Assembly (NCBI GenBank): GCA_031257835.1
Contig: JAIRNY010000001.1
Coordinates: forward strand, 1-46,291
Length of the DNA: 46,291 bases
Reading direction: 5' to 3'
Source of the DNA: Candidatus Endomicrobiellum cryptotermitis
GTDB lineage: Bacteria; Elusimicrobiota; Endomicrobiia; Endomicrobiales; Endomicrobiaceae
Part shown: positions 4,001 to 20,603 of the stretch, piece by piece
Position numbering within the stretch: position 1 is the first letter of the stretch
How the letters are laid out: each line of letters begins with the position of its first letter
Program-made: the position numbers and the translations under genes
Notes under the pieces: model-generated
The model's database searches: none
Told to the model about the DNA's origin: nothing
What the model saw: the letters and a program-made list of their open reading frames with translations, nothing else

Positions 4001-4926
4001 AAGTTCTTGTTACAGGGGGTGCAGGTTTTATAGGTTCTAATATTGTGGACGCTTTACTTGAAAAGAAACATTCAATTGTTGTTATTGACAATTTATCTTC
4101 AGGGAAAAAAGAAAATGTCAATAAACAATCTAAATTTTACAAAGTTGATATTTGTGATCAGAAAAAAGTGTTAGAGATATTTAAACAAGAAAAACCGCAA
4201 ATTGTAATACATCATGCCGCTCAAATTGATGTAAGGAAATCTGTTGCCGACCCTGTTTTTGATGTAAATGTAAATATTATAGGATCAATTAATATTCTCG
4301 GTGCATGTGTGCAAACAAAAGTTAAAAAGATAATTTTTGCTTCTTCAGGCGGTACAATTTATGGGGAATGTAAAGCTGTTGCTCCAAAAGAAGATTCAAT
4401 GCCAGCTGCTTTGTCTCCATATGGTATTTCCAAGAATTCTGTGGAGAACTATATAAAATTTTATTCTGATATTTATGGTTTAGAATATACAATTTTAAGA
4501 TATGGGAATGTTTTTGGGCCAAGACAAGACCCTTATGGCGAGGCAGGTGTAGTTGCTATATTTGCTCAAAGAATGCTTAAAAATGAAGGTATTAGGGTTT
4601 TTGGAGACGGTAAACAGATGAGAGATTATGTTTATGTCTCTGATGTTGTATATGCAAATGTTAAATCTTTAACAAAAGGGAAAAATGAAGTTATAAATAT
4701 AGGTACATCTAAAACAACTTCTGTTAATAAACTTGTAGAAGTTATGAGCAAGGTTAGTGGGTATAAGAAAAAAGCTATACGTAAACCTAAAAGAGTAGGA
4801 GAACTATTTAAAAGTTTTTTAAACATAAACAGAGCAAAAAAAGTTTTAGGGTGGACACCTAAAGTAAGTTTAGATAATGGCATAAAAGTTACTGTAGAAT
4901 ATTTTAAAGAAAGGCTAAATAAATGA
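3997..4926 (+). CDS. NAD-dependent sugar epimerase/dehydratase (GalE-like)
   Basis: Extended short-chain dehydrogenase that interconverts or modifies NDP-sugars. The start at 3997 gives MKVLVTGGAGFIGSN, the expected N-terminal Rossmann motif, and makes an ATGA overlap with the preceding gene. A longer reading from 3931 adds 22 unrelated residues and is unlikely. The active-site pair appears as YGISK (Tyr-x3-Lys), with the SSGGTIYG strand before it. RYGNVFGPRQDP and RDYVYVSDVV are standard substrate-binding motifs. At 309 aa it resembles the shorter GalE-type UDP-glucose 4-epimerases. The substrate could equally be UDP-GlcNAc or the product of a neighbouring enzyme. Confidence 0.87.
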   Translation: MKVLVTGGAGFIGSNIVDALLEKKHSIVVIDNLSSGKKENVNKQSKFYKVDICDQKKVLEIFKQEKPQIVIHHAAQIDVRKSVADPVFDVNVNIIGSINILGACVQTKVKKIIFASSGGTIYGECKAVAPKEDSMPAALSPYGISKNSVENYIKFYSDIYGLEYTILRYGNVFGPRQDPYGEAGVVAIFAQRMLKNEGIRVFGDGKQMRDYVYVSDVVYANVKSLTKGKNEVINIGTSKTTSVNKLVEVMSKVSGYKKKAIRKPKRVGELFKSFLNINRAKKVLGWTPKVSLDNGIKVTVEYFKERLNK

Positions 4927-5957
4927 AAGCGTTTGTTTTAGCTGCTGGAATTGGCACAAGACTTAAACCTCTTACTACAGATATACCTAAGCCAATGGTC
5001 CCTATTTTAGGCAGACCAGCTTTATATTATACATTTGCTAATCTTTTAAAGTATGGTTTTGACAGTGTTTGTGTAAATACACATTACCGGAGCGAAGTTA
5101 TAACAGACTATTTTAAAGATAATAAATTTGGCATAAATTTAAAATTTTCTTGTGAGCACAAACTTTTAGGTACAGCAGGAGCAATAAAAAAGAATGAATC
5201 TTTTTTTGATGATACATTTGTTGTTATGTCTGGTGACGGTTTAACTGATATTAACCTTAAAAAAGCTCTAGAATTTCATAAACAAAAAAAGTCTATTGCA
5301 ACTGTTGTTTTAAAAAGAATAAAGTTAAGATTTGAATATGGTATAGCAATAACGGACAGAACAGGGCAAATTAACTCTTTTGTGGAAAAGCCGTTATGGG
5401 GAGATGTTTTTAATGATGAAGTAAATACTGGTATATATATATTTGAGCCCAAAATTTTTGATTTTATCCCCAAGGACAAATTTTTTGATTTTGGCAAGGA
5501 CTTATTTCCTCTTTTAATGCAGAAAAAAGAGAAGATGTACGGATATTTAATGGATGAATATTGGACAGATATCGGAAATATTAGTGAGTATAAAAAGGGT
5601 CTTTTTGATATTTTAGATGACAAAGTGAAAATAGATTTAAATGCTGTAAAAAGTTCAAGTAATAAGTATATATCTTCTAGCGCTAAAATAGATAAAACTG
5701 TAAAAATACAAGGCCCTTGTTATATTGGTGACAACGTTGTAATAAAAGGAGGGGCAAAGATAAAACCTTATAGTGTTGTATCAAAAAATGTCATAATAGA
5801 CAAAAACAGTGTAATAGAGAAGTCTATACTTTGGGAAAATACTAAAATTGGTAAAAGAGTGAAATTAAGAAACACAATAGTTGGTAGTAATATCCTGGTT
5901 ACTAACCAAATAACATTGTTTGATTCTATACTAATGGAAGAAAAAACATCTTTTTAA
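4923..5957 (+). CDS. Sugar-1-phosphate nucleotidyltransferase with hexapeptide-repeat tail
   Basis: Makes an NDP-sugar from a sugar 1-phosphate. The N-terminal pyrophosphorylase signature is complete (LAAGIGTRLKPLTTDIPKPMVPI, with the catalytic G-x-G-T-R-L and PKP). GTAGAIK, VMSGDGL and FVEKP mark the nucleotide and sugar sites. After about residue 245 the protein turns into I/V-rich hexapeptide repeats of a left-handed beta-helix (SAKIDKTVKIQGPCYIGDN...). This layout fits mannose-1-phosphate guanylyltransferase-like enzymes, or Glc-1-P thymidylyl/uridylyltransferase relatives. ATG overlaps the epimerase stop (ATGA), so the two are coupled. Confidence 0.85.
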   Translation: MKAFVLAAGIGTRLKPLTTDIPKPMVPILGRPALYYTFANLLKYGFDSVCVNTHYRSEVITDYFKDNKFGINLKFSCEHKLLGTAGAIKKNESFFDDTFVVMSGDGLTDINLKKALEFHKQKKSIATVVLKRIKLRFEYGIAITDRTGQINSFVEKPLWGDVFNDEVNTGIYIFEPKIFDFIPKDKFFDFGKDLFPLLMQKKEKMYGYLMDEYWTDIGNISEYKKGLFDILDDKVKIDLNAVKSSSNKYISSSAKIDKTVKIQGPCYIGDNVVIKGGAKIKPYSVVSKNVIIDKNSVIEKSILWENTKIGKRVKLRNTIVGSNILVTNQITLFDSILMEEKTSF

Positions 5958-9900: not shown

Positions 9901-11633
9901 TTGTTCAGATTAAAATTAACTTCAGTATACTTTTTTATCTTAATTACTGTTTTTTTTGTATTTAGGGTTGTGTTATTGTGTACTAATTACAGATTTTTAA
10001 ATCAATTGTCTTGTCTTGAACTTTTATACTCTTTTTTACTGGGGTTTCGTTTTGATCTTTTTGCAATTTCTGTAATTTGTGGAATCTTTTGTTTTTAATA
10101 AATATACCTAAATTTTTTAATAAACACTTAACTACAGAAATATTATTAGCTAAAAATCATGCCAGCTACTTTTTAAGTTTAGCGTTTAAAGATTATTTTT
10201 TTATCACTTTTTTAAATTTATTTGTAACTTTTATAGTAGGTTTTATTTTGGTTGTTTTTGCTAGGGGGTGGGGTGCAAGAGAAGATTCTTTCTATTACAG
10301 ATGCATATTCTAGAAATAAAATTTCTGGAGAATTACAGCTGAACGGTGTTTTTACTTCTTTAAAAAGTATAAGCGCTCAAACTTTGCCAAATGATATAAA
10401 TATTTCTTATAAAAGTGTGCTTTCTATTTGTAAGAGATAACCTTTTAGATAAAAGTGAAGAGGTTTTTGTAGATGAGAAATATACTTTAATGAGGCAAAG
10501 AATTAAGTTTAATGTGAATGCGCAAGGATATAATGTTATAATTATCTTGCTTGAAAGTTGGCAAAAAGATTATATAGATTCGTTGGCTGGAACAAACTAT
10601 GGTGTTAGTCCAAATTTTGACAACATTTCTAAGGATTCAATAATGTTTGACAACTTTTATGCTAATGGGCAAAGAAGTATAATGGGGTTGATGTCCCTTT
10701 TTTTTTTTGAGTATTCCTTATGTAAAAGGTATGCTCTATTTTGGACAAGGTCTTGAAAATTGTGGTCAAACAAGACTGCCTGCGATACTAGGAAAAAGTG
10801 GGTATGGCAATGTATTTGTTCAGGGTGATAAAAGAGAATCTGATAATGCGATAGCAATAGCAAACTATTTAGATTTTAACAATTCTTATGGTAAGCAAGA
10901 TATTCCACTGCATCATAACTATTTGCAGATAAATAAAGGTTATGACATAGAGGGGCTGGAATTTTTCTTTAATAAAGTTCAAAAATTAAAAAGTCCTTTT
11001 TTTGGATTTTACTTTACTTCAACTACCCACATCCCTTACACAAAAACAGTTTTAAAATTTCTTGAAAAATATCCTGAAGATGGTACAGAGAGAACTGGAT
11101 ATTTAAACAGACTCTATTATTCTGACTATGCGTTGGGTGAATTTTTTAAAAAAGTAAAAGAGTCTAAGTGGTTTGATAAAACAATTTTTATATTACTTTA
11201 TGATCATCAAGCTTATGGGGTTGGTGGGATAAACGGACTTTTTGAAAAGACAAAAGTAGACAAAACATTTAAAATTCCAGCAATAATATACTGCCCAAAA
11301 TTGTTTAAGTTTCAAAGGAATACTGCTCTTGCAAGTCAAATTGACATTGTGTCTACAATAATTGATTTGTTGAACATAAAAACTCCTTACTCTTCTTTAG
11401 GAAAAAGTTTGTTTTCTAAAACAAAAAATAGATTTGTTTTTCTTTCTTATGAAGGAGAACAGGTTTATCTGATAAATAGTGAAGGGGTTTTAAGTTGCGA
11501 TTGGAAAGATGTTTATAATAAACAAAAAAAGTTGTTGTTTGAAAAGAATGAAAAGTTATTGTTTTCAATAGAGAAAGTGGTCTATTATTTAACTGCAAAA
11601 GATAAGTGGTACGATACTAAAATTTTAAATTAA
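9901..11633 (+). pseudogene. LTA synthase / sulfatase-family membrane phosphotransferase, four frameshifts
   Basis: The pieces 9901-10098, 10077-10313, 10252-10440, 10415-10756 and 10707-11633 read in consecutive frames as one protein of about 577 aa. It has an N-terminal multi-pass membrane region, then an alkaline-phosphatase/sulfatase-like domain: VIIILLESW, YANGQRSIMGLMS (nucleophile region, Ser where many relatives have Thr), LPAILGKSGY, STTHIPYT and LLYDHQAYG. This is the architecture of LtaS/OpgB-type enzymes that move phosphoglycerol or phosphoethanolamine onto envelope glycans. Breaks lie at or near homopolymers (T5 near 10093, G5 at 10263-10267, T-run near 10699). The start is TTG at 9901 with no clear ribosome site. 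Sequencing error or slippage rescue cannot be excluded. Confidence 0.78.
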
Positions 11634-11654: not shown

Positions 11655-12830
11655 ATGAAAAATTTTATCTGTTTGTTTTTCATTCTTTTATTAGTTACTA
11701 TGCCCAAAACCTTAGAAGCTTTTTTTAGTAATTCAGGTTATCAAATTTTTAATTATAATAATTTCTTCATGTCGTGTGACTTTTTGTATGAGGATAGTAT
11801 TATTTGTCCTTTTTGTACTAAGATGTCTGCAGGCAGTAATAAAAGTTATGTAGAGGTTACGAATTTATATTTTGAAGAGTTTGATTATGAACCTAGTTTA
11901 GAATTTAAACTTTTAACCCCACAACATCAAAGTGATTCTATTTCTATATATGATGAAGAAGACGTTATTTTTAATGTAGTGCATAATGATGTAGTAAATA
12001 ATGCCCCTCAAGAAGGCTATCCAAAAATTCTATTAAAGTTTCCTGACGCTTCAACTAAAACTTACTCAATGGATAAAGGTGGGTCTGTAGATAAATATAA
12101 AGCTTCATATACGTACACTTTAAAATTGGATAAAGGTAGTTATGAATATAAGTATATAACTACAAACAAATATGACAGTACTAATTTGTGCGAAGTAAAA
12201 GGAAATTGGCATGTTACTAGTAGACCTTACAATTTTATTAAAAAATCACCACATTCTACATTTGAAGAAATACCACCAGACAATATATTCTTTTCTTGGA
12301 ACGTAAATACTGATGAAAATGACGATAAACTATCTTATGAGTTATACTTAGGTCTTGAATCAAAGAAGTCTGATATTAAAAAAATAGAAAAATGTCCAGA
12401 TATTAATTCTTTATCTCATAACATATCAAAATTAAAACATAAGAAAAAATATTATTGGTATATGATTATAAAAAATAAGTTTGGAGTATTTCTTGAAACT
12501 GAAATGTTTTCTTTTTTTACAGGAGGGTTAGTAGAAAAGTTTTATAATGTACCTAATCCATTTAATCCTGATATAGGTACAGTAACTGACTTTGTTTTTC
12601 CTATGTATTATGACGGCAGTGCTGAAATAAAAATTTATTCTGAATATGGTGACCTTGTTTGGGAATCAGATAAATCTTTTTTTGATGGGAGTACTACTGG
12701 CAACATAAAGTATGATGGAAAAGATAATTTAGGAAGAACTCTTTATAATGGTAGTTACATTGCAATTTTAACTAAAAAGTACGAAGATAAAATGGAAACT
12801 GAACGGTGCAGAATACTTATAATAAAATAA
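11655..12830 (+). CDS. Secreted protein with FN3-like region and C-terminal FlgD/T9SS-type sorting domain
   Basis: Function unknown, but the domain order is readable. A signal peptide (KNFICLFFILLLVTMPKTLEAF) covers residues 1-23. An all-beta region of about 170 aa with a CPFC motif follows. An FN3-like segment (residues about 192-290: FFSWNVNTDEND...YELYLG...KKKYYWYMI) comes next. From residue 297 there is a FlgD-type Ig fold that begins VPNPFNPDIGTVTDFVF and ends YDGKDNLGRTLYNGSYIAIL. This PNPFNP...D-G-x-D-x-x-G-x-x-x-x-x-G-x-Y pattern is typical of C-terminal domains of secreted, surface-bound proteins in T9SS-bearing phyla. It sits directly before the PorV-like and SprA-like genes, with a 25-nt overlap into the former. 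It could be a cargo or an accessory protein. Confidence 0.68.
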   Translation: MKNFICLFFILLLVTMPKTLEAFFSNSGYQIFNYNNFFMSCDFLYEDSIICPFCTKMSAGSNKSYVEVTNLYFEEFDYEPSLEFKLLTPQHQSDSISIYDEEDVIFNVVHNDVVNNAPQEGYPKILLKFPDASTKTYSMDKGGSVDKYKASYTYTLKLDKGSYEYKYITTNKYDSTNLCEVKGNWHVTSRPYNFIKKSPHSTFEEIPPDNIFFSWNVNTDENDDKLSYELYLGLESKKSDIKKIEKCPDINSLSHNISKLKHKKKYYWYMIIKNKFGVFLETEMFSFFTGGLVEKFYNVPNPFNPDIGTVTDFVFPMYYDGSAEIKIYSEYGDLVWESDKSFFDGSTTGNIKYDGKDNLGRTLYNGSYIAILTKKYEDKMETERCRILIIK

Positions 12831-14557
12831 TATTAGCTATTCTATTATTGTTATTGATATGTCAAGCTAAAGAAATATATGGATATTCCGGTAGAAGAAA
12901 ACATTTTCTATCGCATGGGGCAAGCGTTGCTGCTTTTGGTGCTGGAGAAACTGTTTTTTCTGCTTACAGAGATCCGTCAGTTTTGCAATATAATCCAGCT
13001 TTAATGTTTTTTGCTGCAAATGCGATATCTGTATCTCATTTTAATTTGTTTGAAGGCTCTTCTTATAATTCTGCAACACTTGCTTTTAGGCTAAGTAAAA
13101 AAATTCATCTTGGACTTTCTGCATCTAATTTAGCTAGTGGAAATATTGAAATAAGAGAAAATATTTATACTTTAGAGAAAATTGTTTCTGTAAATAGTTG
13201 GAACTATGTTTTTTCTTTTTCAGATTTTTTAGAAAATTTGGCAGTTGTGTATGGATTAAATGTAAAATATGTATATTTTGATATGTACTTTAAAAAAGGA
13301 CCAATGTATTGTTGTGATTTTGGTTTAGCAAAAGAGGTGTTTTTGGCAGATGCAATAAAAATAAAAACTGCTTTTTCTGTGCAAAATTTTATTGCAAATA
13401 AACCTAGGATTGATTACACCTTTGACGAGATCCCTTTAATTTATAGATTTAGCTCTGCTTTTGTTTTACCAACGTATTATAGGTTTACGTCAAAGGATAC
13501 TTTTAATATTTATGTAGATTTAAAGTATGAAGATTCTTTTAGTGAGGTTTGTGCAGGGTTGTCTTATATTTTTGCAGAAAAATATGCTTTACGTGCAGGC
13601 TATTATACTAAACACATTACATTTGGTGCCGGAGCTGATTTTTATATGTTTACAGTAGACTATGCTGCAGATTTTAGTGAAATAGATTTGATAAACAGAT
13701 TTATGTTGACATATAGGTGGATAAAAAAGTGTGATGTTTTACTAAAAGAAGCAAAAATTGCCTTACATGAAGAGATATCTTATATGAAGATAGCTCAAGA
13801 AGAGTTTAAAAAAGCAAAGGAGTTATATAATAAAAAAGAGTATTTAAAAGCTACAGATAAATTGTCAAAAGTCATTGTTTCTTATCCAAATTTTGAATCG
13901 TCGAGCCATTTTTATAACGATATTATTACATTGATGAATAATAATGCTAATGATAAAAATCTTAATTTTGCTGATAAATATTATGCTAAAGCTTATATTG
14001 AATATTATAATGCAAATTATAAGGAAGCTTTAAATGAATGGATAAAATATATAGCGTTTACTGGAGGAAAAGCAGAAATTTTTGAGTACAAAGATAAGAT
14101 AGATAACATCTTAAAATTAAAGGAAATGGAAGATAAAGAAAAAGAGGTTACCCTTAAAGTTCAAAAACTTTTTCAAGAAGGAATTGAACTTTATAGTTTA
14201 AAAAAATGGATACATTGTATTAAAAAGATGGAATCTATGGAGAAATTTATAAGTAATAATAATTTTTCAAAGTCAGTAGAATTTTATAATAAAGCTAAAG
14301 AATATATAAATAAATGCGTTATTGAATTGTCGAATAGTATGTTAGTAGTAGACTCAAAAGATAAAGATTCTTTAAGAGAAGAAGTCAAGTATGATGAAGT
14401 TGCTGCAGATGAAAAATACAGAGAAGGGCTTGTCTTATATGCTCAAGGTAAGTACTATCAAGCAAGTAGGATGTGGGAGCTAGCTTTAAGACTAAACCAT
14501 AATCATAAAAAAGCAAAAATTGCTTTACATAGAATAAAAAAAATTAAGCTTGAGTAA
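12806..14557 (+). CDS. PorV/PorQ-like outer-membrane beta-barrel with C-terminal TPR region
   Basis: A GTG start at 12806 (inside the previous gene, GGAAA upstream) is followed by a signal peptide (ILAILLLLLICQAKEIYG). The N-terminal half (to about residue 303) is a FadL-like barrel of the PorV/PorQ type: GAGETVFSAYRDPSVLQYNPA matches the family's start (G-x-G-[DE]-x6-D-x4-x-W/Y-NPA), followed by alternating aromatic strands. Residues about 305-583 are helical with TPR-like repeats (for example YNKKEYLKATDKLSKVI, YYNANYKEALNEW, YAQGKYYQASRMWELAL). In T9SS, PorV binds SprA and carries cargo. Here the gene precedes the SprA-like gene by 6 nt. The TPR addition is not part of classical PorV. Confidence 0.66.
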   Translation: MQNTYNKIILAILLLLLICQAKEIYGYSGRRKHFLSHGASVAAFGAGETVFSAYRDPSVLQYNPALMFFAANAISVSHFNLFEGSSYNSATLAFRLSKKIHLGLSASNLASGNIEIRENIYTLEKIVSVNSWNYVFSFSDFLENLAVVYGLNVKYVYFDMYFKKGPMYCCDFGLAKEVFLADAIKIKTAFSVQNFIANKPRIDYTFDEIPLIYRFSSAFVLPTYYRFTSKDTFNIYVDLKYEDSFSEVCAGLSYIFAEKYALRAGYYTKHITFGAGADFYMFTVDYAADFSEIDLINRFMLTYRWIKKCDVLLKEAKIALHEEISYMKIAQEEFKKAKELYNKKEYLKATDKLSKVIVSYPNFESSSHFYNDIITLMNNNANDKNLNFADKYYAKAYIEYYNANYKEALNEWIKYIAFTGGKAEIFEYKDKIDNILKLKEMEDKEKEVTLKVQKLFQEGIELYSLKKWIHCIKKMESMEKFISNNNFSKSVEFYNKAKEYINKCVIELSNSMLVVDSKDKDSLREEVKYDEVAADEKYREGLVLYAQGKYYQASRMWELALRLNHNHKKAKIALHRIKKIKLE

Positions 14558-14563
14558 TTGTAA

Positions 14564-17500
14564 ATGGACCCTTTTGAAAAAGTTAAAATTTTTATTTTAA
14601 TATTTCTTATATTAATTACTCTAACATATAAAGTAAATTCTAAAGATGTTGAAAGGGAATATTCCGTGCTTGGACCTTACAGGGATGAAGTTTATAGAGA
14701 ATTTGATAAGTATAATATGTTTAAAAATGTTGATGCTGTTGAACCATCTGGAACAACAATATCCCAAGAATATTTTTCACAACATAATGAGTTTAAATTG
14801 CCAGAATCTGCTCAAGAAATTGCAGGTCAGGAAATTTTAAAATATTTAGAAAATAAAGAAGATGATAATATAAAGTATTCACAAAATAGTTGGCTACTAA
14901 AAGATCTCATCATCTCTGACACAAATACTGTTTTAGTTTCGTCTACTTCTTTGTCTAAAATAAGATTACCGCTTCAGTCGAGCTTATCAATTACTGGAAG
15001 AAAATTGATAGGCTTTAATTATTCTCAAAGAGTTTATGATAATCAAGAAGATGGTAAACGTCAAAACTCGTCATCATTTAAAATGGAACAAGAAATGCAG
15101 ATGAAGGTTTTAGGAGGTGTTGGTGATAGGTTTAATGTCAATATTGATTATGATGATAAAGCAGAAAAAAAGGATATATCGTTAATATATAATGGAAAAC
15201 CTGGAGAATTTATACAACAGGCTTCATTTGGTGATATAGAAGTATCATTACCCACTACAGAATTTACAGGGTATAAAAAAGAACTGTTTGGCTTAAAAGT
15301 GGATACTCATTATAAAAATTTAGGAGTTAACGCTTTTTTTAGTAAAACTAAAGGACTTTCTGAAGTTAAACGTTTTGTAGGAAATACTCAGTTAGAAAGA
15401 AAAGTTATACCAGATACTGCTTATATAAAATTAAAATATTATTCTCTTTTACGAAATGGAGATAATCGTAAAATAAAAAGTGGAACAGTTAAGGTATATG
15501 TGGCTTATCAAAAGTTAGACCCAAAATATAATTTTACTATTACTTCAGATGTAACTCTTTATAATTTAAATGCTACTGATGGTTTTTCTTATAAGGGAAA
15601 CTTTGTTCTTCTTGTTGCAGGACAAGATTTTAGTGTTGATTATAATACTGGTGTGCTTGTTTTTAAAAATCCCATATCTAAAGGTGATGTTGTAGCTGTA
15701 AATTATGATTTTGAAGATGGCACACCTCTTTCAGTTAACCCTTTAATTATTAAGGATATTAATGATACTCAAAATATCACGACACAAATTAAAACTTTTT
15801 ATAATTTAGGTAATTTAAAAATAATAAGAGATAATGGAAGAGGAAATTTTTTACTTGTAATTAAAGATCTCAATGGCAATACTCCTACAGTTATTGATGG
15901 AAGTAAAAATGTACCATTATATCCTCAAAAACCAGGATATAATGCAAATATTGACGTTGATTTTGAAAATGGTATTTTTAAATTGTCTGAAACTTTGCAC
16001 GATTCTTTGTATTTAACTAATGACCATAAATATAATTTTGAGACAGAGTACCAGTATAATGTCAAAATAATAATGTTAAGGCCAAACATCGTTCCAAAGT
16101 CGGAGAAAGTTGTTGTTGATGGTGTCACTTTAAGTCCTGAGATAGATTATATTTTAGATTATGATTTAGGTATTTTAACAATAAAGAATGAAAATATAAT
16201 AAAAGAAAAGTCTGTGATAGATGTGTCTTATGATTACTCTTTATTAGGTGCTCAGGCAGAGACTGTTCTTCTTGGAGCTAGTAGTAAGTTTAACTTAACT
16301 GAAAATATTTCTATTGGCGCGAGTATGTTGCACAATTTTATGTCTAAAAGTACAGCTTTGCCAGATATAAGGAATGCGCCTATAAGTCTTACTGTAGGAG
16401 AAGGTGATTTTAAAATTGATAATTTAAATATAGATGCATTAAATATACAACTTAATGCAAATGCAGAGTACGCTTTAAGTGCTTATAATGAAAATACTGT
16501 AAATAAAGCTTTAATAGATTCTATGGACAGTTCTGTTAGAGAAGATTCAATTATTCTTTTAGAAGATAATTGGTTTCATAGCGCAGATAAATACCCTACA
16601 ACAAGAAGAATGTTAAACGATTTATCTTGGAATAGTTATGAGATTAATATAAAAGATATTGATCCAAGTTTGGAGCTAGTTGATGGTCAAAAACAACTAG
16701 TTTTAGAGTTAAATTACGATGTTAGGTATAGAAGTCAAATAGCTTTTGCTCAAAAAATTTGTCCAAATTGGAACGGTTTAGATTTTTCTAAAAAACTTTA
16801 TCTTGAAGTGTGGATAAAAGATAATAGCTCTAATTTTCATGAAATGGTGATAGATTGTGCTTCATGTATTAATGAGGATTCAGATGGATGTGGTGTGTTA
16901 GATACTGAAGATGTCGATGGTACAGGAATTTTAAGTCCTTGGAAAGATACTGGCAGAAAATTTCATAATGTTGACGGTACAGTGTCTTTAATAGGTGCTC
17001 ATAATAGTAAGCTTGAGACGGAAGACATAAATGGTAATGGAGTACTAGATACTTTAGAAGACATAGCTGGTAGCTATAGTCTTTCAAGCTCAAGTGTTGC
17101 TGTAATTAAACAGAATATTAATGGGTGGAAACAAGTTAGGATACCTTTAGGTATAAATGATGCCAATAGGACAAATTGGAAAAACATAAGAATTTTGCGT
17201 ATTAGAATGAAGCAGATGGATTCCGGAGGTGATTTAGGTAAGATTATTATAGGCAAAATTTCTATAGTTGGAAACAAATGGGGAAAGACAGGTCTTAATT
17301 CAGATAATTTTAGTATTTCTTCTATAGGAAGATATGACCCCGAATATAGGTCAGTTTTAACTAGTAAATACTATTTAGATTTATATGGAATAAGTGGTCA
17401 AATTAAAAAAGATGAAAGTGCTTTAAAGTTTTCTTATGATACGTTTATTACCAATGCTCCTTTACTTGCAAAAGCGGTTTATACTGGAGATGTTTTAGAT

Positions 17501-19873
17501 ATATCTAAATATGACAGTATATGTTTTATGGTTTATGCAAAACCCAGTGATGGCTTTGCACAAGTAGGAGATGAAATAATATTTAGAGCTTGTGGAAATG
17601 ATGATAATTATTTTGAGTATAAAACTATAGTTAGTAATGATGTATCGTGGCAAGATTGGAAAGTTATTAAAATTAATCAATCAGGTTTTGGGAAAAATGC
17701 TTCCTGGACAAGCTTTGACTCTAGTGGACAAATAACAATAACTGGAAACCCGTCATTAAATAGGATTTCTCAATTTGTGTTAGGTGTTAAGTCAAACTCT
17801 GTGGGAAATAAACATCAAATTTGGTTTAAAGAATTGCATGTAATTGGTAGTAAACAGACCATAGGTAAAGCTTATAAAACAGCAGGTGACATCAAGTGGA
17901 ATGGAACATCTAGCTTAGGTGCAGTTTCTATTGGAGGATCTAAAAAATCTATAAATAGAGATTTTCAAAATCTTGCAGCGGGAGTGTATAATAGAGATTT
18001 ACGTGAAGAAGACGCTTATATTAGTTTGGGAGGATTTACTCCTAAAGAACATATAAGTATTCTCCCTATCAAAACTGGAATTTCAAGAAGTTGTACAGTA
18101 ACCCCTGAAGTTATAGAAAATAAATCTAATTTAATTTCTTTAAACGAGAAAGGGCGAGTAATAACATATACAGGTTATACTCAAACTGATTTAAGTTTAG
18201 GCACAAATTTACCGCAAATATCTGCAAAATATGCTAGGTCTATTATAGATACTTCTAAAATCAGTCGTTTAGAAGATAGGGAAACTTTGTCAGGCACTAT
18301 GGTTTATAATAACCCTATTAGGATTTTTCTGTTGCCTACAAATATTAACGCTGATGTAAAAACGATAAAGTCTTATTATAAAGTTTATCCTTCAACTCCC
18401 ATACTAGAGTCCGATTCTTTTTTAGGTTTAGACAAAATAAACAAATACTTGGATGTTAATCAATACCATACGTTAGAAGAGTCTAAAATGTTTATTTTTA
18501 AACTTCCTTTTAAATTTTTTGATGGTGTTACATTTTTACCAGCTTATTCATTAAATATGGTAAAAGAAAAAAATAACGATTTTACTACTGAAATTGAGTA
18601 CGACAAAACTTTAAACCAAACTGTAGGTGCAAGTGTAATTTTAGGGTTTGTAAATTGGTTTAGTCCGTCTTGTATATATAGTATTAACACAAAAGAAAAT
18701 TATGATATAAATTTAAGTACATCTCAGACAACTTTAAAAATACCCGGTCAAAAAAAGTATATAGAAAGAAATGGTGTTGGTGAAATTGCATGGAACTTAA
18801 ACGCTTGTGATATTACAAAGTTAGCTTTGTTTAAAAGTTTAACTTTTTCAACATATTATCGATTACAGGATTCTGATTCTTATGATAGGGTAAATAAAGA
18901 TTTTAGGTCTATAGGTTTTGCTATGGACAGACTTTGGGTCAGAGATAATATTTTAATGGATTTGGAACCTTTTTATTCTACTAATTCTTATATTGTTAAA
19001 ACAATTTTAAATAAAGATGATATTCGTTTTTCTGGTAAATATATGCCTTTTGAAATATTTTCTTTTCAAGGATACCTTTTACCATTAAACACGTTTACTA
19101 CTAATTGTACTTACACACAGGGAAATGAAAATTCATATATAACTGGAACAAGACGAACTATATGTACTTTGACTTGGCCAGATATTCTTATAGGCATATC
19201 TAAAACAGAGAGATTTTTATTTAGTACAAATTTTTTAAGTGACACTCAATTGAATGCTAAATATAAAAATAAGCATATGACAACTTATGGAATTGCATAT
19301 TCTGATAGTCTTTTATATGGTTTAGAGTATAGGTTCAAATTTATAAAACTTTTTGATTTGTATTTAGGTTTAGATAATACAGACTCTCAAGAACATGATT
19401 ATATCACTTCCGATGTTATTTATAATGGTAATGGTCAAAAATATGCGTGTCAGAGCACTTTTGATGTGGGTAAATGGAGATTTTCTATAAGATATGAAAA
19501 TGAACATAATTGGCAAAAAAATGCTTCTGGAAGATATGTGTCTAATGTTAAAAAAAATACTTATTTAGGACAAGTAAATTTAGACACTTTGTTCCCTTCG
19601 GGTTTGAGTATACCAATTATAAAAATATTTGTTCCACTTAGAAACAGAATTATTTTTACGTCTACTCTTAAATATATAGACCAACAGTCTCAAGTAACTA
19701 TAGAAAAAGACAATAATACAAACTTTGGTGTTTCGCTAAATACTGATTACGAAATATCTAAATATTTTAGATTTATTTTTGGACTTAGTTGGGATAGGTT
19801 TGAGTTTCGATATAACAGAAATTTAAATTATCACGATATTACTGCTTTAAGTAAATTAACTTTTCAGTTTTAA
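14564..19873 (+). CDS. SprA-like giant outer-membrane protein (type IX secretion translocon family)
   Basis: 1769 aa with an N-terminal membrane/signal segment (residues 8-26) and, at the extreme end, an amphipathic strand finishing in Phe (ALSKLTFQF), the usual barrel-terminal signal. Residues about 141-245 hold the SprA-type block: ITGRKLIGFNYS, then VGDRFNVNIDYDD, ISLIYNGKPGEFIQ, SFGDIEVSLP and ELFGLKVD. Further typical pieces are YKVYP and EDINGNGVLDTLED. Two acidic D-x-[DN]-G repeats (residues about 770-790 and 817-838) look like calcium-binding loops inserted in a periplasmic domain. Bacteroidota SprA is about 2300-2500 aa, so this is shortened but uninterrupted. It follows the PorV-like gene by 6 nt. 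Identification is from remembered family motifs; a generic large OM protein is the alternative. Confidence 0.7.
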   Translation: MDPFEKVKIFILIFLILITLTYKVNSKDVEREYSVLGPYRDEVYREFDKYNMFKNVDAVEPSGTTISQEYFSQHNEFKLPESAQEIAGQEILKYLENKEDDNIKYSQNSWLLKDLIISDTNTVLVSSTSLSKIRLPLQSSLSITGRKLIGFNYSQRVYDNQEDGKRQNSSSFKMEQEMQMKVLGGVGDRFNVNIDYDDKAEKKDISLIYNGKPGEFIQQASFGDIEVSLPTTEFTGYKKELFGLKVDTHYKNLGVNAFFSKTKGLSEVKRFVGNTQLERKVIPDTAYIKLKYYSLLRNGDNRKIKSGTVKVYVAYQKLDPKYNFTITSDVTLYNLNATDGFSYKGNFVLLVAGQDFSVDYNTGVLVFKNPISKGDVVAVNYDFEDGTPLSVNPLIIKDINDTQNITTQIKTFYNLGNLKIIRDNGRGNFLLVIKDLNGNTPTVIDGSKNVPLYPQKPGYNANIDVDFENGIFKLSETLHDSLYLTNDHKYNFETEYQYNVKIIMLRPNIVPKSEKVVVDGVTLSPEIDYILDYDLGILTIKNENIIKEKSVIDVSYDYSLLGAQAETVLLGASSKFNLTENISIGASMLHNFMSKSTALPDIRNAPISLTVGEGDFKIDNLNIDALNIQLNANAEYALSAYNENTVNKALIDSMDSSVREDSIILLEDNWFHSADKYPTTRRMLNDLSWNSYEINIKDIDPSLELVDGQKQLVLELNYDVRYRSQIAFAQKICPNWNGLDFSKKLYLEVWIKDNSSNFHEMVIDCASCINEDSDGCGVLDTEDVDGTGILSPWKDTGRKFHNVDGTVSLIGAHNSKLETEDINGNGVLDTLEDIAGSYSLSSSSVAVIKQNINGWKQVRIPLGINDANRTNWKNIRILRIRMKQMDSGGDLGKIIIGKISIVGNKWGKTGLNSDNFSISSIGRYDPEYRSVLTSKYYLDLYGISGQIKKDESALKFSYDTFITNAPLLAKAVYTGDVLDISKYDSICFMVYAKPSDGFAQVGDEIIFRACGNDDNYFEYKTIVSNDVSWQDWKVIKINQSGFGKNASWTSFDSSGQITITGNPSLNRISQFVLGVKSNSVGNKHQIWFKELHVIGSKQTIGKAYKTAGDIKWNGTSSLGAVSIGGSKKSINRDFQNLAAGVYNRDLREEDAYISLGGFTPKEHISILPIKTGISRSCTVTPEVIENKSNLISLNEKGRVITYTGYTQTDLSLGTNLPQISAKYARSIIDTSKISRLEDRETLSGTMVYNNPIRIFLLPTNINADVKTIKSYYKVYPSTPILESDSFLGLDKINKYLDVNQYHTLEESKMFIFKLPFKFFDGVTFLPAYSLNMVKEKNNDFTTEIEYDKTLNQTVGASVILGFVNWFSPSCIYSINTKENYDINLSTSQTTLKIPGQKKYIERNGVGEIAWNLNACDITKLALFKSLTFSTYYRLQDSDSYDRVNKDFRSIGFAMDRLWVRDNILMDLEPFYSTNSYIVKTILNKDDIRFSGKYMPFEIFSFQGYLLPLNTFTTNCTYTQGNENSYITGTRRTICTLTWPDILIGISKTERFLFSTNFLSDTQLNAKYKNKHMTTYGIAYSDSLLYGLEYRFKFIKLFDLYLGLDNTDSQEHDYITSDVIYNGNGQKYACQSTFDVGKWRFSIRYENEHNWQKNASGRYVSNVKKNTYLGQVNLDTLFPSGLSIPIIKIFVPLRNRIIFTSTLKYIDQQSQVTIEKDNNTNFGVSLNTDYEISKYFRFIFGLSWDRFEFRYNRNLNYHDITALSKLTFQF

Positions 19874-19883
19874 AATTTTTAAA

Positions 19884-20603
19884 ATGATAAAAAAAATATT
19901 TTTAAAAACAATTAATTTGTTATATCCTGTTACCTGTTCTTTATGTGGTAAAGATTTGACTGCTATATCTAAATATAAAATTTGTGATGAATGTAAAAAA
20001 TCTTTTAATAAAATAAAAGATGATATATGCCAAAAGTGTGGTATTAATTTAGGTGATGGGGGAAAGTTGTGTTGTACATGTAGGAAAAATTTACAAACAT
20101 ATGGCTTTGACAAATTAAGATCAGTTTATTTATATAAAGGGAACTTGAGAAAATTAATTTTAAAATTTAAGTACTCAAACAGACCTTTTTTATATAAAGA
20201 CTTTGCTTTTGAAATGAGTAAATTAATACAAGAATATGATTTTTTTAGCAGTTCAGATTTCATTATATCTGTGCCCCTAAATATTTTAAGGAAAATAAAA
20301 AGAGGTTATAATCAAGCAGAACTTTTGGCAAAAGGAGTGTCTATTAAAACAGAAATTCCTATATTAAGAAATATTTTGTTTAGAAAAAAAATTACAAAAC
20401 CTCAATTTAAATTGTCTAAATCTGAAAGAGTGAAAAATATTGACAATTCTTTTGTTGTGAAAAATAAAAATGTGATAAAAGGTAAAACGATTTTGTTAGT
20501 AGATGATATAGCTACTACTTGTTCAACTGTGTCTTCTTGTGCTAATGTACTTAAATGTAATGGAGCACAAAAAGTTTACGTTTTAACGCTTGCCAGAGAC
20601 TAA
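19884..20603 (+). CDS. ComF-family phosphoribosyltransferase-like protein
   Basis: Double-zinc-finger plus phosphoribosyltransferase protein, related to ComFC of DNA uptake and to GntX. The N-terminus has the Cys pairs CSLCGKD, CDECKK, CQKCG and CCTCRK. The PRPP-binding loop ILLVDDIATTCSTV is near residues 208-221 and complete. YKGNLRKLILKFKYSNRP and RGYNQAELLAK are family hallmarks. At 239 aa the length is normal. It lies 10 nt after the SprA-like gene, at the end of the long gene run. No other competence gene is in the window, so its role here (nucleotide salvage, DNA uptake) is open. Confidence 0.88.
   Translation: MIKKIFLKTINLLYPVTCSLCGKDLTAISKYKICDECKKSFNKIKDDICQKCGINLGDGGKLCCTCRKNLQTYGFDKLRSVYLYKGNLRKLILKFKYSNRPFLYKDFAFEMSKLIQEYDFFSSSDFIISVPLNILRKIKRGYNQAELLAKGVSIKTEIPILRNILFRKKITKPQFKLSKSERVKNIDNSFVVKNKNVIKGKTILLVDDIATTCSTVSSCANVLKCNGAQKVYVLTLARD

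What the first reader, a model, noticed from the sequence alone, without database searches (positions are those of the whole stretch)
11655..19873. Compact SprA/PorV-like type IX secretion module with a sorting-domain protein
Seen: a secreted protein ending in a PNPFNP/FlgD-type domain, a PorV-like barrel, and a 1769-aa SprA-like protein lie head-to-tail with a 25-nt overlap and a 6-nt gap. Known: SprA is the T9SS outer-membrane translocon, and PorV is its partner that shuttles cargo. Inference: this is a reduced or divergent T9SS outer-membrane module in a likely Elusimicrobiota genome, embedded in envelope-glycan genes. No PorK/L/M/N/P/U or T9SS regulator lies here. This is the best candidate for a system of its own.
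Basis: partly seen in the sequence, partly recalled or inferred. Interest (0 to 1): 0.85.

Follow-up and report, generated by a model that had tools for sequence, protein, structure and literature searches.

The report
SprA-type protein exporter in Elusimicrobiota
A termite-gut symbiont of the phylum Elusimicrobiota carries, side by side, the outer-membrane gate (SprA), a carrier (PorV) and a tagged cargo of the type IX protein export system, which is described as confined to the Bacteroidota and their FCB allies; the same parts run through the whole phylum, but the motor known to drive the system was not found.

Summary
The window is a contig of a Ca. Endomicrobiellum MAG (Elusimicrobiota). 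The 1769-aa protein is SprA: its family profile hits only Flavobacterium SprA in the PDB (E 4.6e-38), and the predicted fold of its last 1199 residues matches SprA at E 3e-37 (next best 3.5e-6). The 583-aa protein is a PorV-type barrel with a periplasmic TPR tail; the 391-aa protein ends in a type-A-like sorting domain (CTD) related to that of PorU. SprA occurs in 105/120 Elusimicrobiota genomes, never above the curated cut-off, so annotation pipelines would miss it. PorV-type proteins reach dozens per genome and CTD proteins up to 88, often as adjacent cargo-carrier gene pairs. In one SprA-less Endomicrobiellum genome the SprA gene, this CTD gene and its PorV gene are all decayed while flanking lptFG and comF stay intact. 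GldL, GldM, GldN, GldK proper and catalytic PorU were not detected, though no positive control could be run. The cargo-carrier-SprA operon is local to six Endomicrobiellum genomes; the ancestral setting is lptFG-sprA-comF. Most likely: a divergent T9SS-type export pathway, ancient in Elusimicrobiota, with an unknown energy source.

The parts
11655..12830 (+). Probable cargo: secreted 391-aa protein, N-terminal signal peptide (by eye), Ig/fibronectin-like middle, C-terminal T9SS type-A-like (PorU/FlgD-type) sorting domain in about the last 100 residues
12513..12827 (+). the sorting domain (CTD) used in alignment A2
   Evidence: 20 of 21 A2 members match TIGR04183, 21 of 21 match the PorU C-terminus; PDB best hit PorU 6za2 E 1.3e-14, also CTDs bound in the SprA translocon (8glk_D)
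12806..14557 (+). PorV-family carrier (14-strand FadL-type barrel, residues ~33-305) with C-terminal TPR domain (~309-582); overlaps the cargo gene by 25 nt
   Evidence: NF033709 E 5.8e-16; profile A4 to PorV 6h3i_F E 2.6e-41; AlphaFold2 pLDDT 79.8; Foldseek best hits PorV 8gl6_F 3.4e-13 and 6h3i_F 5.3e-13, FadL next at 3e-7
14564..19873 (+). SprA-type outer-membrane translocon, 1769 aa, ends in an OMP-type terminal Phe
19884..20603 (+). comF-family phosphoribosyltransferase gene, a conserved downstream neighbour of sprA across the phylum (73 of 107 loci); not thought to be part of the machine

Best explanation
This is the outer-membrane half of a divergent type-IX-like protein export pathway, ancient in Elusimicrobiota. 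Cargo crosses the inner membrane by Sec (inferred from signal peptides), its C-terminal sorting domain enters the SprA barrel from the periplasm, passes to the outside, and is collected by a PorV-family carrier barrel that docks at SprA's lateral opening and then takes the cargo away on the cell surface (by analogy with F. johnsoniae SprA-PorV-CTD structures). Unlike Bacteroidota type A cargo, which all share one PorV, Elusimicrobiota cargo genes often come with their own PorV gene next door, so carriers look dedicated, as PorP/SprF carriers are for type B cargo. Because PorU, GldL, GldM and GldN were not detected, cargo is probably left bound to its carrier rather than cleaved, and carrier ejection must be powered differently; the periplasmic TPR (or OmpA) tails on many carriers are the likeliest handle. 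Shown here: homology, fold, gene pairing, phylum-wide conservation, purifying selection, joint decay. Inferred: transport itself, carrier dedication, lack of a Bacteroidota-type motor, role of the TPR tail.
For: SprA: only PDB hits are F. johnsoniae SprA, three collinear stretches; fold of residues 571-1769, pLDDT 86.6, best four hits all SprA, E 3e-37 to 5e-28, next 3.5e-6. Phylum-wide: 105/120 genomes, 44/48 genera; the SprA tree follows the taxonomy (family, order and class groups each together). PorV. CTD. Pairing: a CTD gene ends <=400 nt upstream on the same strand of 14 of 23 PorV genes examined in two genomes (7/7 in G037, 7/16 in G012), chance about 0.3-0.5% each. Cargo domains are extracellular types: subtilases, GH81, beta-helix, TIG repeats. 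Joint loss in the genus: PorV-family match in 12/12 SprA+ versus 2/10 (weak) SprA- genomes, CTD match 8/12 versus 0/10, while LptF is kept in 10/10 SprA- genomes. In G017 the SprA remnant lies between intact comF and intact lptFG, and the orthologous CTD-PorV pair elsewhere is also a multi-frame, stop-ridden remnant.
Against: All scores are below curated cut-offs for SprA and for the window's PorV. Motor and ring components, without which T9SS transport stops in Bacteroidota, were not found. In the Elusimicrobiaceae-like family f12 SprA is kept although few CTD or PorV genes are (G034: 1 CTD protein; 2-6 PorV matches per genome), so SprA may have another or additional job there. Several Endomicrobiaceae MAGs have PorV and CTD genes but no SprA in the assembly (G048, G116), perhaps from fragmentation. 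The genus co-loss counts are not corrected for shared ancestry. No expression or biochemical data.
Confidence: 0.85

Rival explanations
1. A complete T9SS with GldK/L/M/N homologues too diverged for the Bacteroidota models; nothing mechanistically new, only a new host phylum. (This is a rival about the motor only; it is compatible with the best explanation's SprA-PorV-CTD core.)
For: The models are trained on Bacteroidota and gave no positive control (say so); SprA itself scores far below its cut-off in every genome; PorP/SprF-like proteins also occur weakly in 50/120 genomes; generic FGE-fold (GldK-like) hits exist in 28/120.
Against: GldM 0/120, GldN 0/120, GldL only two partial 21-25 bit matches, GldK hits none over cut-off, none in the own genome, and matched also in B. 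subtilis and Methanosarcina; SprA and PorV models from the same source do reach the phylum. No T9SS gene cluster was seen beside sprA in the loci read: neighbours are lptFG and comF.
Confidence: 0.35
2. SprA here has been recruited to lipopolysaccharide or other envelope assembly, as the lptFG-sprA-comF linkage and the reported lack of LptD in Endomicrobiaceae suggest; the CTD and PorV proteins are unrelated FlgD-like and FadL-like proteins.
For: LptF/LptG genes adjoin sprA in 65 of 92 loci; LptD reported absent from all Endomicrobiaceae (PMC11257099); SprA is kept in family f12 with few CTD proteins.
Against: LptF stays intact in ten genomes that lost SprA, so LPS export does not need it there; the fold is SprA, not LptD (E 3e-37 versus 2e-4); CTD and PorV genes are paired with each other and are lost with SprA.
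Confidence: 0.08
3. The PorV-like protein is an ordinary FadL/UPF0164 uptake channel and its place beside the CTD gene is coincidental.
For: PF03687 (UPF0164) and FadL-type matches among relatives; PorV itself has a FadL fold.
Against: PorV beats FadL by six orders of magnitude in fold search and is the only barrel among the listed hits of the family profile; CTD-PorV adjacency is far above chance and the same pair recurs away from sprA in G001 with the same 25-nt overlap (L224).
Confidence: 0.04

Closest known systems
Type IX secretion system (T9SS/PorSS), F. johnsoniae SprA-PorV translocon (PDB 6H3I, 8GL6-8GLN; PMC10994853)
   Same: SprA homologue by sequence and fold, PorV-family carrier, type-A-like C-terminal sorting domains, extracellular enzyme cargo
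   Different: Outside the FCB group; no detectable GldK/L/M/N or catalytic PorU; SprA shorter (1769 versus 2403 aa); many PorV-family carriers, often next to a cargo gene; carriers often fused to TPR or OmpA domains; sprA linked to lptFG and comF
Type B cargo with dedicated PorP/SprF carriers in F. johnsoniae (PMC12618676)
   Same: Cargo gene and cognate carrier gene adjacent, carrier probably stays with cargo
   Different: Here the CTDs are type-A-like and the carriers PorV-family; in Bacteroidota type A cargo share one PorV
Poribacteria proteins with TIGR04183 domains but no Por genes found (PMC3909097)
   Same: T9SS-type CTD proteins in a phylum outside Bacteroidota without the known machinery
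   Different: Here the SprA and PorV partners are present; whether Poribacteria also have a sub-threshold SprA was not tested

Membership tests
T9SS | SprA/Sov translocon | tested here: met
   below the curated cut-off of 200 bits
T9SS | PorV-type carrier barrel | tested here: met
   112/120 genomes have the family; the window protein is below its cut-off
T9SS | Cargo with conserved C-terminal sorting domain, more than one per genome | tested here: met
   own genome 3 loci (645-aa subtilase, the window protein, one frameshifted), up to 88 in G012
T9SS | Proton-driven motor GldL/GldM (PorL/M) | tested here: inconclusive
   not detected: 0/120 GldM, two sub-threshold partial GldL; no positive control available, so absence is not proven
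T9SS | GldK/GldN (PorK/N) ring or track | tested here: inconclusive
   GldN 0/120; GldK only generic FGE-type hits, none in the own genome
T9SS | PorU sortase with catalytic domain | tested here: inconclusive
   all listed PorU-model matches lie in its C-terminal part (positions 836-1095), i.e. other proteins' CTDs; no positive control. PorU is not universal in Bacteroidota T9SS (PMC7323717)
T9SS | Demonstrated export of CTD proteins | not testable with these tools
   needs experiment
LptD-type LPS translocon | LptD fold | tested here: not met
   SprA E 3e-37, LptD 2e-4 with TM 0.17

The most novel reading that the evidence does not exclude
Elusimicrobiota hold a motor-less (or differently powered) form of type IX export: a bare SprA gate with many dedicated PorV-family carriers, whose periplasmic TPR/OmpA tails supply the pull or the trap that the GldLM-GldKN machinery supplies in Bacteroidota; this could be an ancestral stage of the T9SS.
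Probability: 0.35. Interest if true: 0.88.

Novelty: new variant of a known kind. Interest (0 to 1): 0.74.

Why it matters
Recent papers state that T9SS genes are absent outside the FCB phyla (PMC11285876) or restricted to Bacteroidetes (PMC4793230); only three papers in the searched library hold both 'Elusimicrob' and 'T9SS', and none reports the system there. If this is export, it gives Elusimicrobiota, a phylum known mostly from MAGs, a route for putting subtilases, glycoside hydrolases and giant proteins on the surface, and it makes an open question testable: how much of T9SS is gate and carrier and how much is motor. It also offers a lead on the puzzle of CTD proteins in phyla without known Por genes (PMC3909097).

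Tried and rejected
Single-sequence PDB search with the SprA protein gave only chance hits; the family profile was needed. A search of viral structures gave nothing relevant. MotA/ExbB motors were considered as a substitute power source: one copy is present in most Endomicrobiellum genomes with or without SprA and none was found in two with SprA, so presence does not track SprA. Loss of SprA through general outer-membrane loss was considered and rejected, because LptF is retained in all ten SprA-less genomes. No Bacteroidota genome handle could be obtained for a positive control of the GldL/M/N models.

Full report
Observation. The window is contig C25 of a 1.05-Mb MAG (87% complete). The nearest named genomes are Endomicrobium sp. 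Gx481_bin217 and Ca. Endomicrobiellum roisinitermitis, incisitermitis, cubanum and siamense, i.e. family Endomicrobiaceae, phylum Elusimicrobiota.

The 1769-aa protein is SprA. NCBIfam TIGR04189 gives E 1.4e-37, below the curated cut-off. A profile from 32 relatives (A1) finds in the whole PDB only F. johnsoniae SprA (E 4.6e-38) in three collinear stretches between profile positions 144 and 1156. The last third of the protein has no sequence match; an AlphaFold2 model of residues 571-1769 from 73 relatives (pLDDT 86.6, pTM 0.53, about 30 long strands) matches four SprA structures at E 3e-37 to 5e-28, with the next hit at 3.5e-6. Full length could not be folded (1200-aa limit), so a closed single barrel is inferred, not shown.

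The 583-aa protein is a PorV-family carrier with a TPR tail. NF033709 E 5.8e-16; profile A4 to PorV of the solved translocon E 2.6e-41; all 28 relatives match NF033709. The model has an N-terminal helical region, 14 strands and a C-terminal TPR-like helical array; best fold matches are PorV 8gl6_F and 6h3i_F, ahead of FadL. PorV-TPR fusions, and one PorV-OmpA fusion, recur across the phylum.

The 391-aa protein carries a sorting domain. On its own the evidence is modest (PorU C-terminus E 4.6e-6, CHU_C 2e-4), but it aligns with a family (A2) in which 20 of 21 members match TIGR04183 and whose best PDB hits are the CTDs of PorU (1.3e-14) and PorZ, followed by FlgD and, more weakly, by CTD chains trapped in the SprA translocon. 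Cargo bodies in relatives are subtilases, GH81, beta-helix and TIG-repeat proteins.

Distribution. SprA is in 105 of 120 Elusimicrobiota genomes and 44 of 48 genera, never above the curated cut-off, which would hide it from annotation pipelines. Its tree follows the taxonomy, which points to vertical descent within the phylum. PorV-family proteins are in 112 of 120 genomes, with up to about 60 candidates in one; CTD matches number 88 in G012, 35 in G037, 7 in G023 and 3 in the own genome. PorP/SprF-like proteins match weakly in 50 genomes, none over cut-off, not the own.

Pairing. In two genomes 14 of 23 PorV genes start within 400 nt downstream of a CTD gene on the same strand, against about 0.3-0.5% by chance; only the best-scoring PorV genes were listed, so this sample is not random. 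In Endomicrobiaceae the order is often reversed (PorV first, then the CTD subtilase, e.g. L174). The window's own CTD-PorV pair also exists away from sprA in G001 (L224), with the same 25-nt overlap; in six genomes it stands directly before sprA, all three genes under purifying selection. Elsewhere sprA lies beside lptF-lptG (65 of 92 loci in either orientation, 60 divergent) and before comF (73 of 107) (some loci are duplicates of one genome, so these are rough counts).

Joint loss. Ten Endomicrobiellum genomes lack SprA. PorV-family matches are present in 12/12 SprA+ and 2/10 SprA- genomes, both of the latter weak; CTD matches in 8/12 and 0/10 (shared ancestry not corrected). LptF is intact in all ten. 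In G017 the space between intact comF and lptFG holds a SprA remnant with stops and frame changes, and the orthologue of the window's CTD-PorV pair is a remnant too. Decay of all three while neighbours survive argues that they work together.

What is missing. GldM 0/120, GldN 0/120, GldL two partial weak matches, GldK only generic FGE-type matches, PorU only its C-terminal part. In F. johnsoniae the energy-requiring step is ejection of carrier-cargo complexes from the translocon (PMC12635249), so the power source is the open question. MotA/ExbB presence does not track SprA.

Judgement. By parts and fold this is type IX export; by defining machinery it is incomplete. I file it as a new variant: it works like the gate-and-carrier half of the T9SS, while membership of the full system is not established.

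Noticed in passing
window 10415-11633: LtaS-like sulfatase gene is split into 113-aa and 308-aa ORFs here but is a single 643-aa ORF in the sister genome (L021:9893-11824): frameshifted gene or assembly error.
   Followed up: partly
L228 (own genome G000:C28), 4144-5801: A second secreted CTD protein related to a subtilase-like protein in L156 is frameshifted so that its sorting domain is cut off from the body: possible early decay of cargo genes in this genome, or an assembly error.
   Followed up: partly
G012:C3:141248, G037:C6:90176, G089:C26:39698, G030:C6:189653: CTD-type domains in giant open frames of about 13,000-18,000 aa in free-living Elusimicrobiota.
   Followed up: no
L021-L139, between lptFG and comF: Phylum-wide linkage of sprA with lptF/lptG and comF; the reason for the link with LPS export genes is unknown.
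   Followed up: partly
L075:4184-7798: A second ORF of 1788 aa ending in ...LLGVKYSF (OMP-like C-terminus) just upstream of sprA, not aligned or identified.
   Followed up: no
family f12 of the phylum sample, e.g. G034: SprA is kept although CTD and PorV genes are few; its job there is unclear.
   Followed up: no
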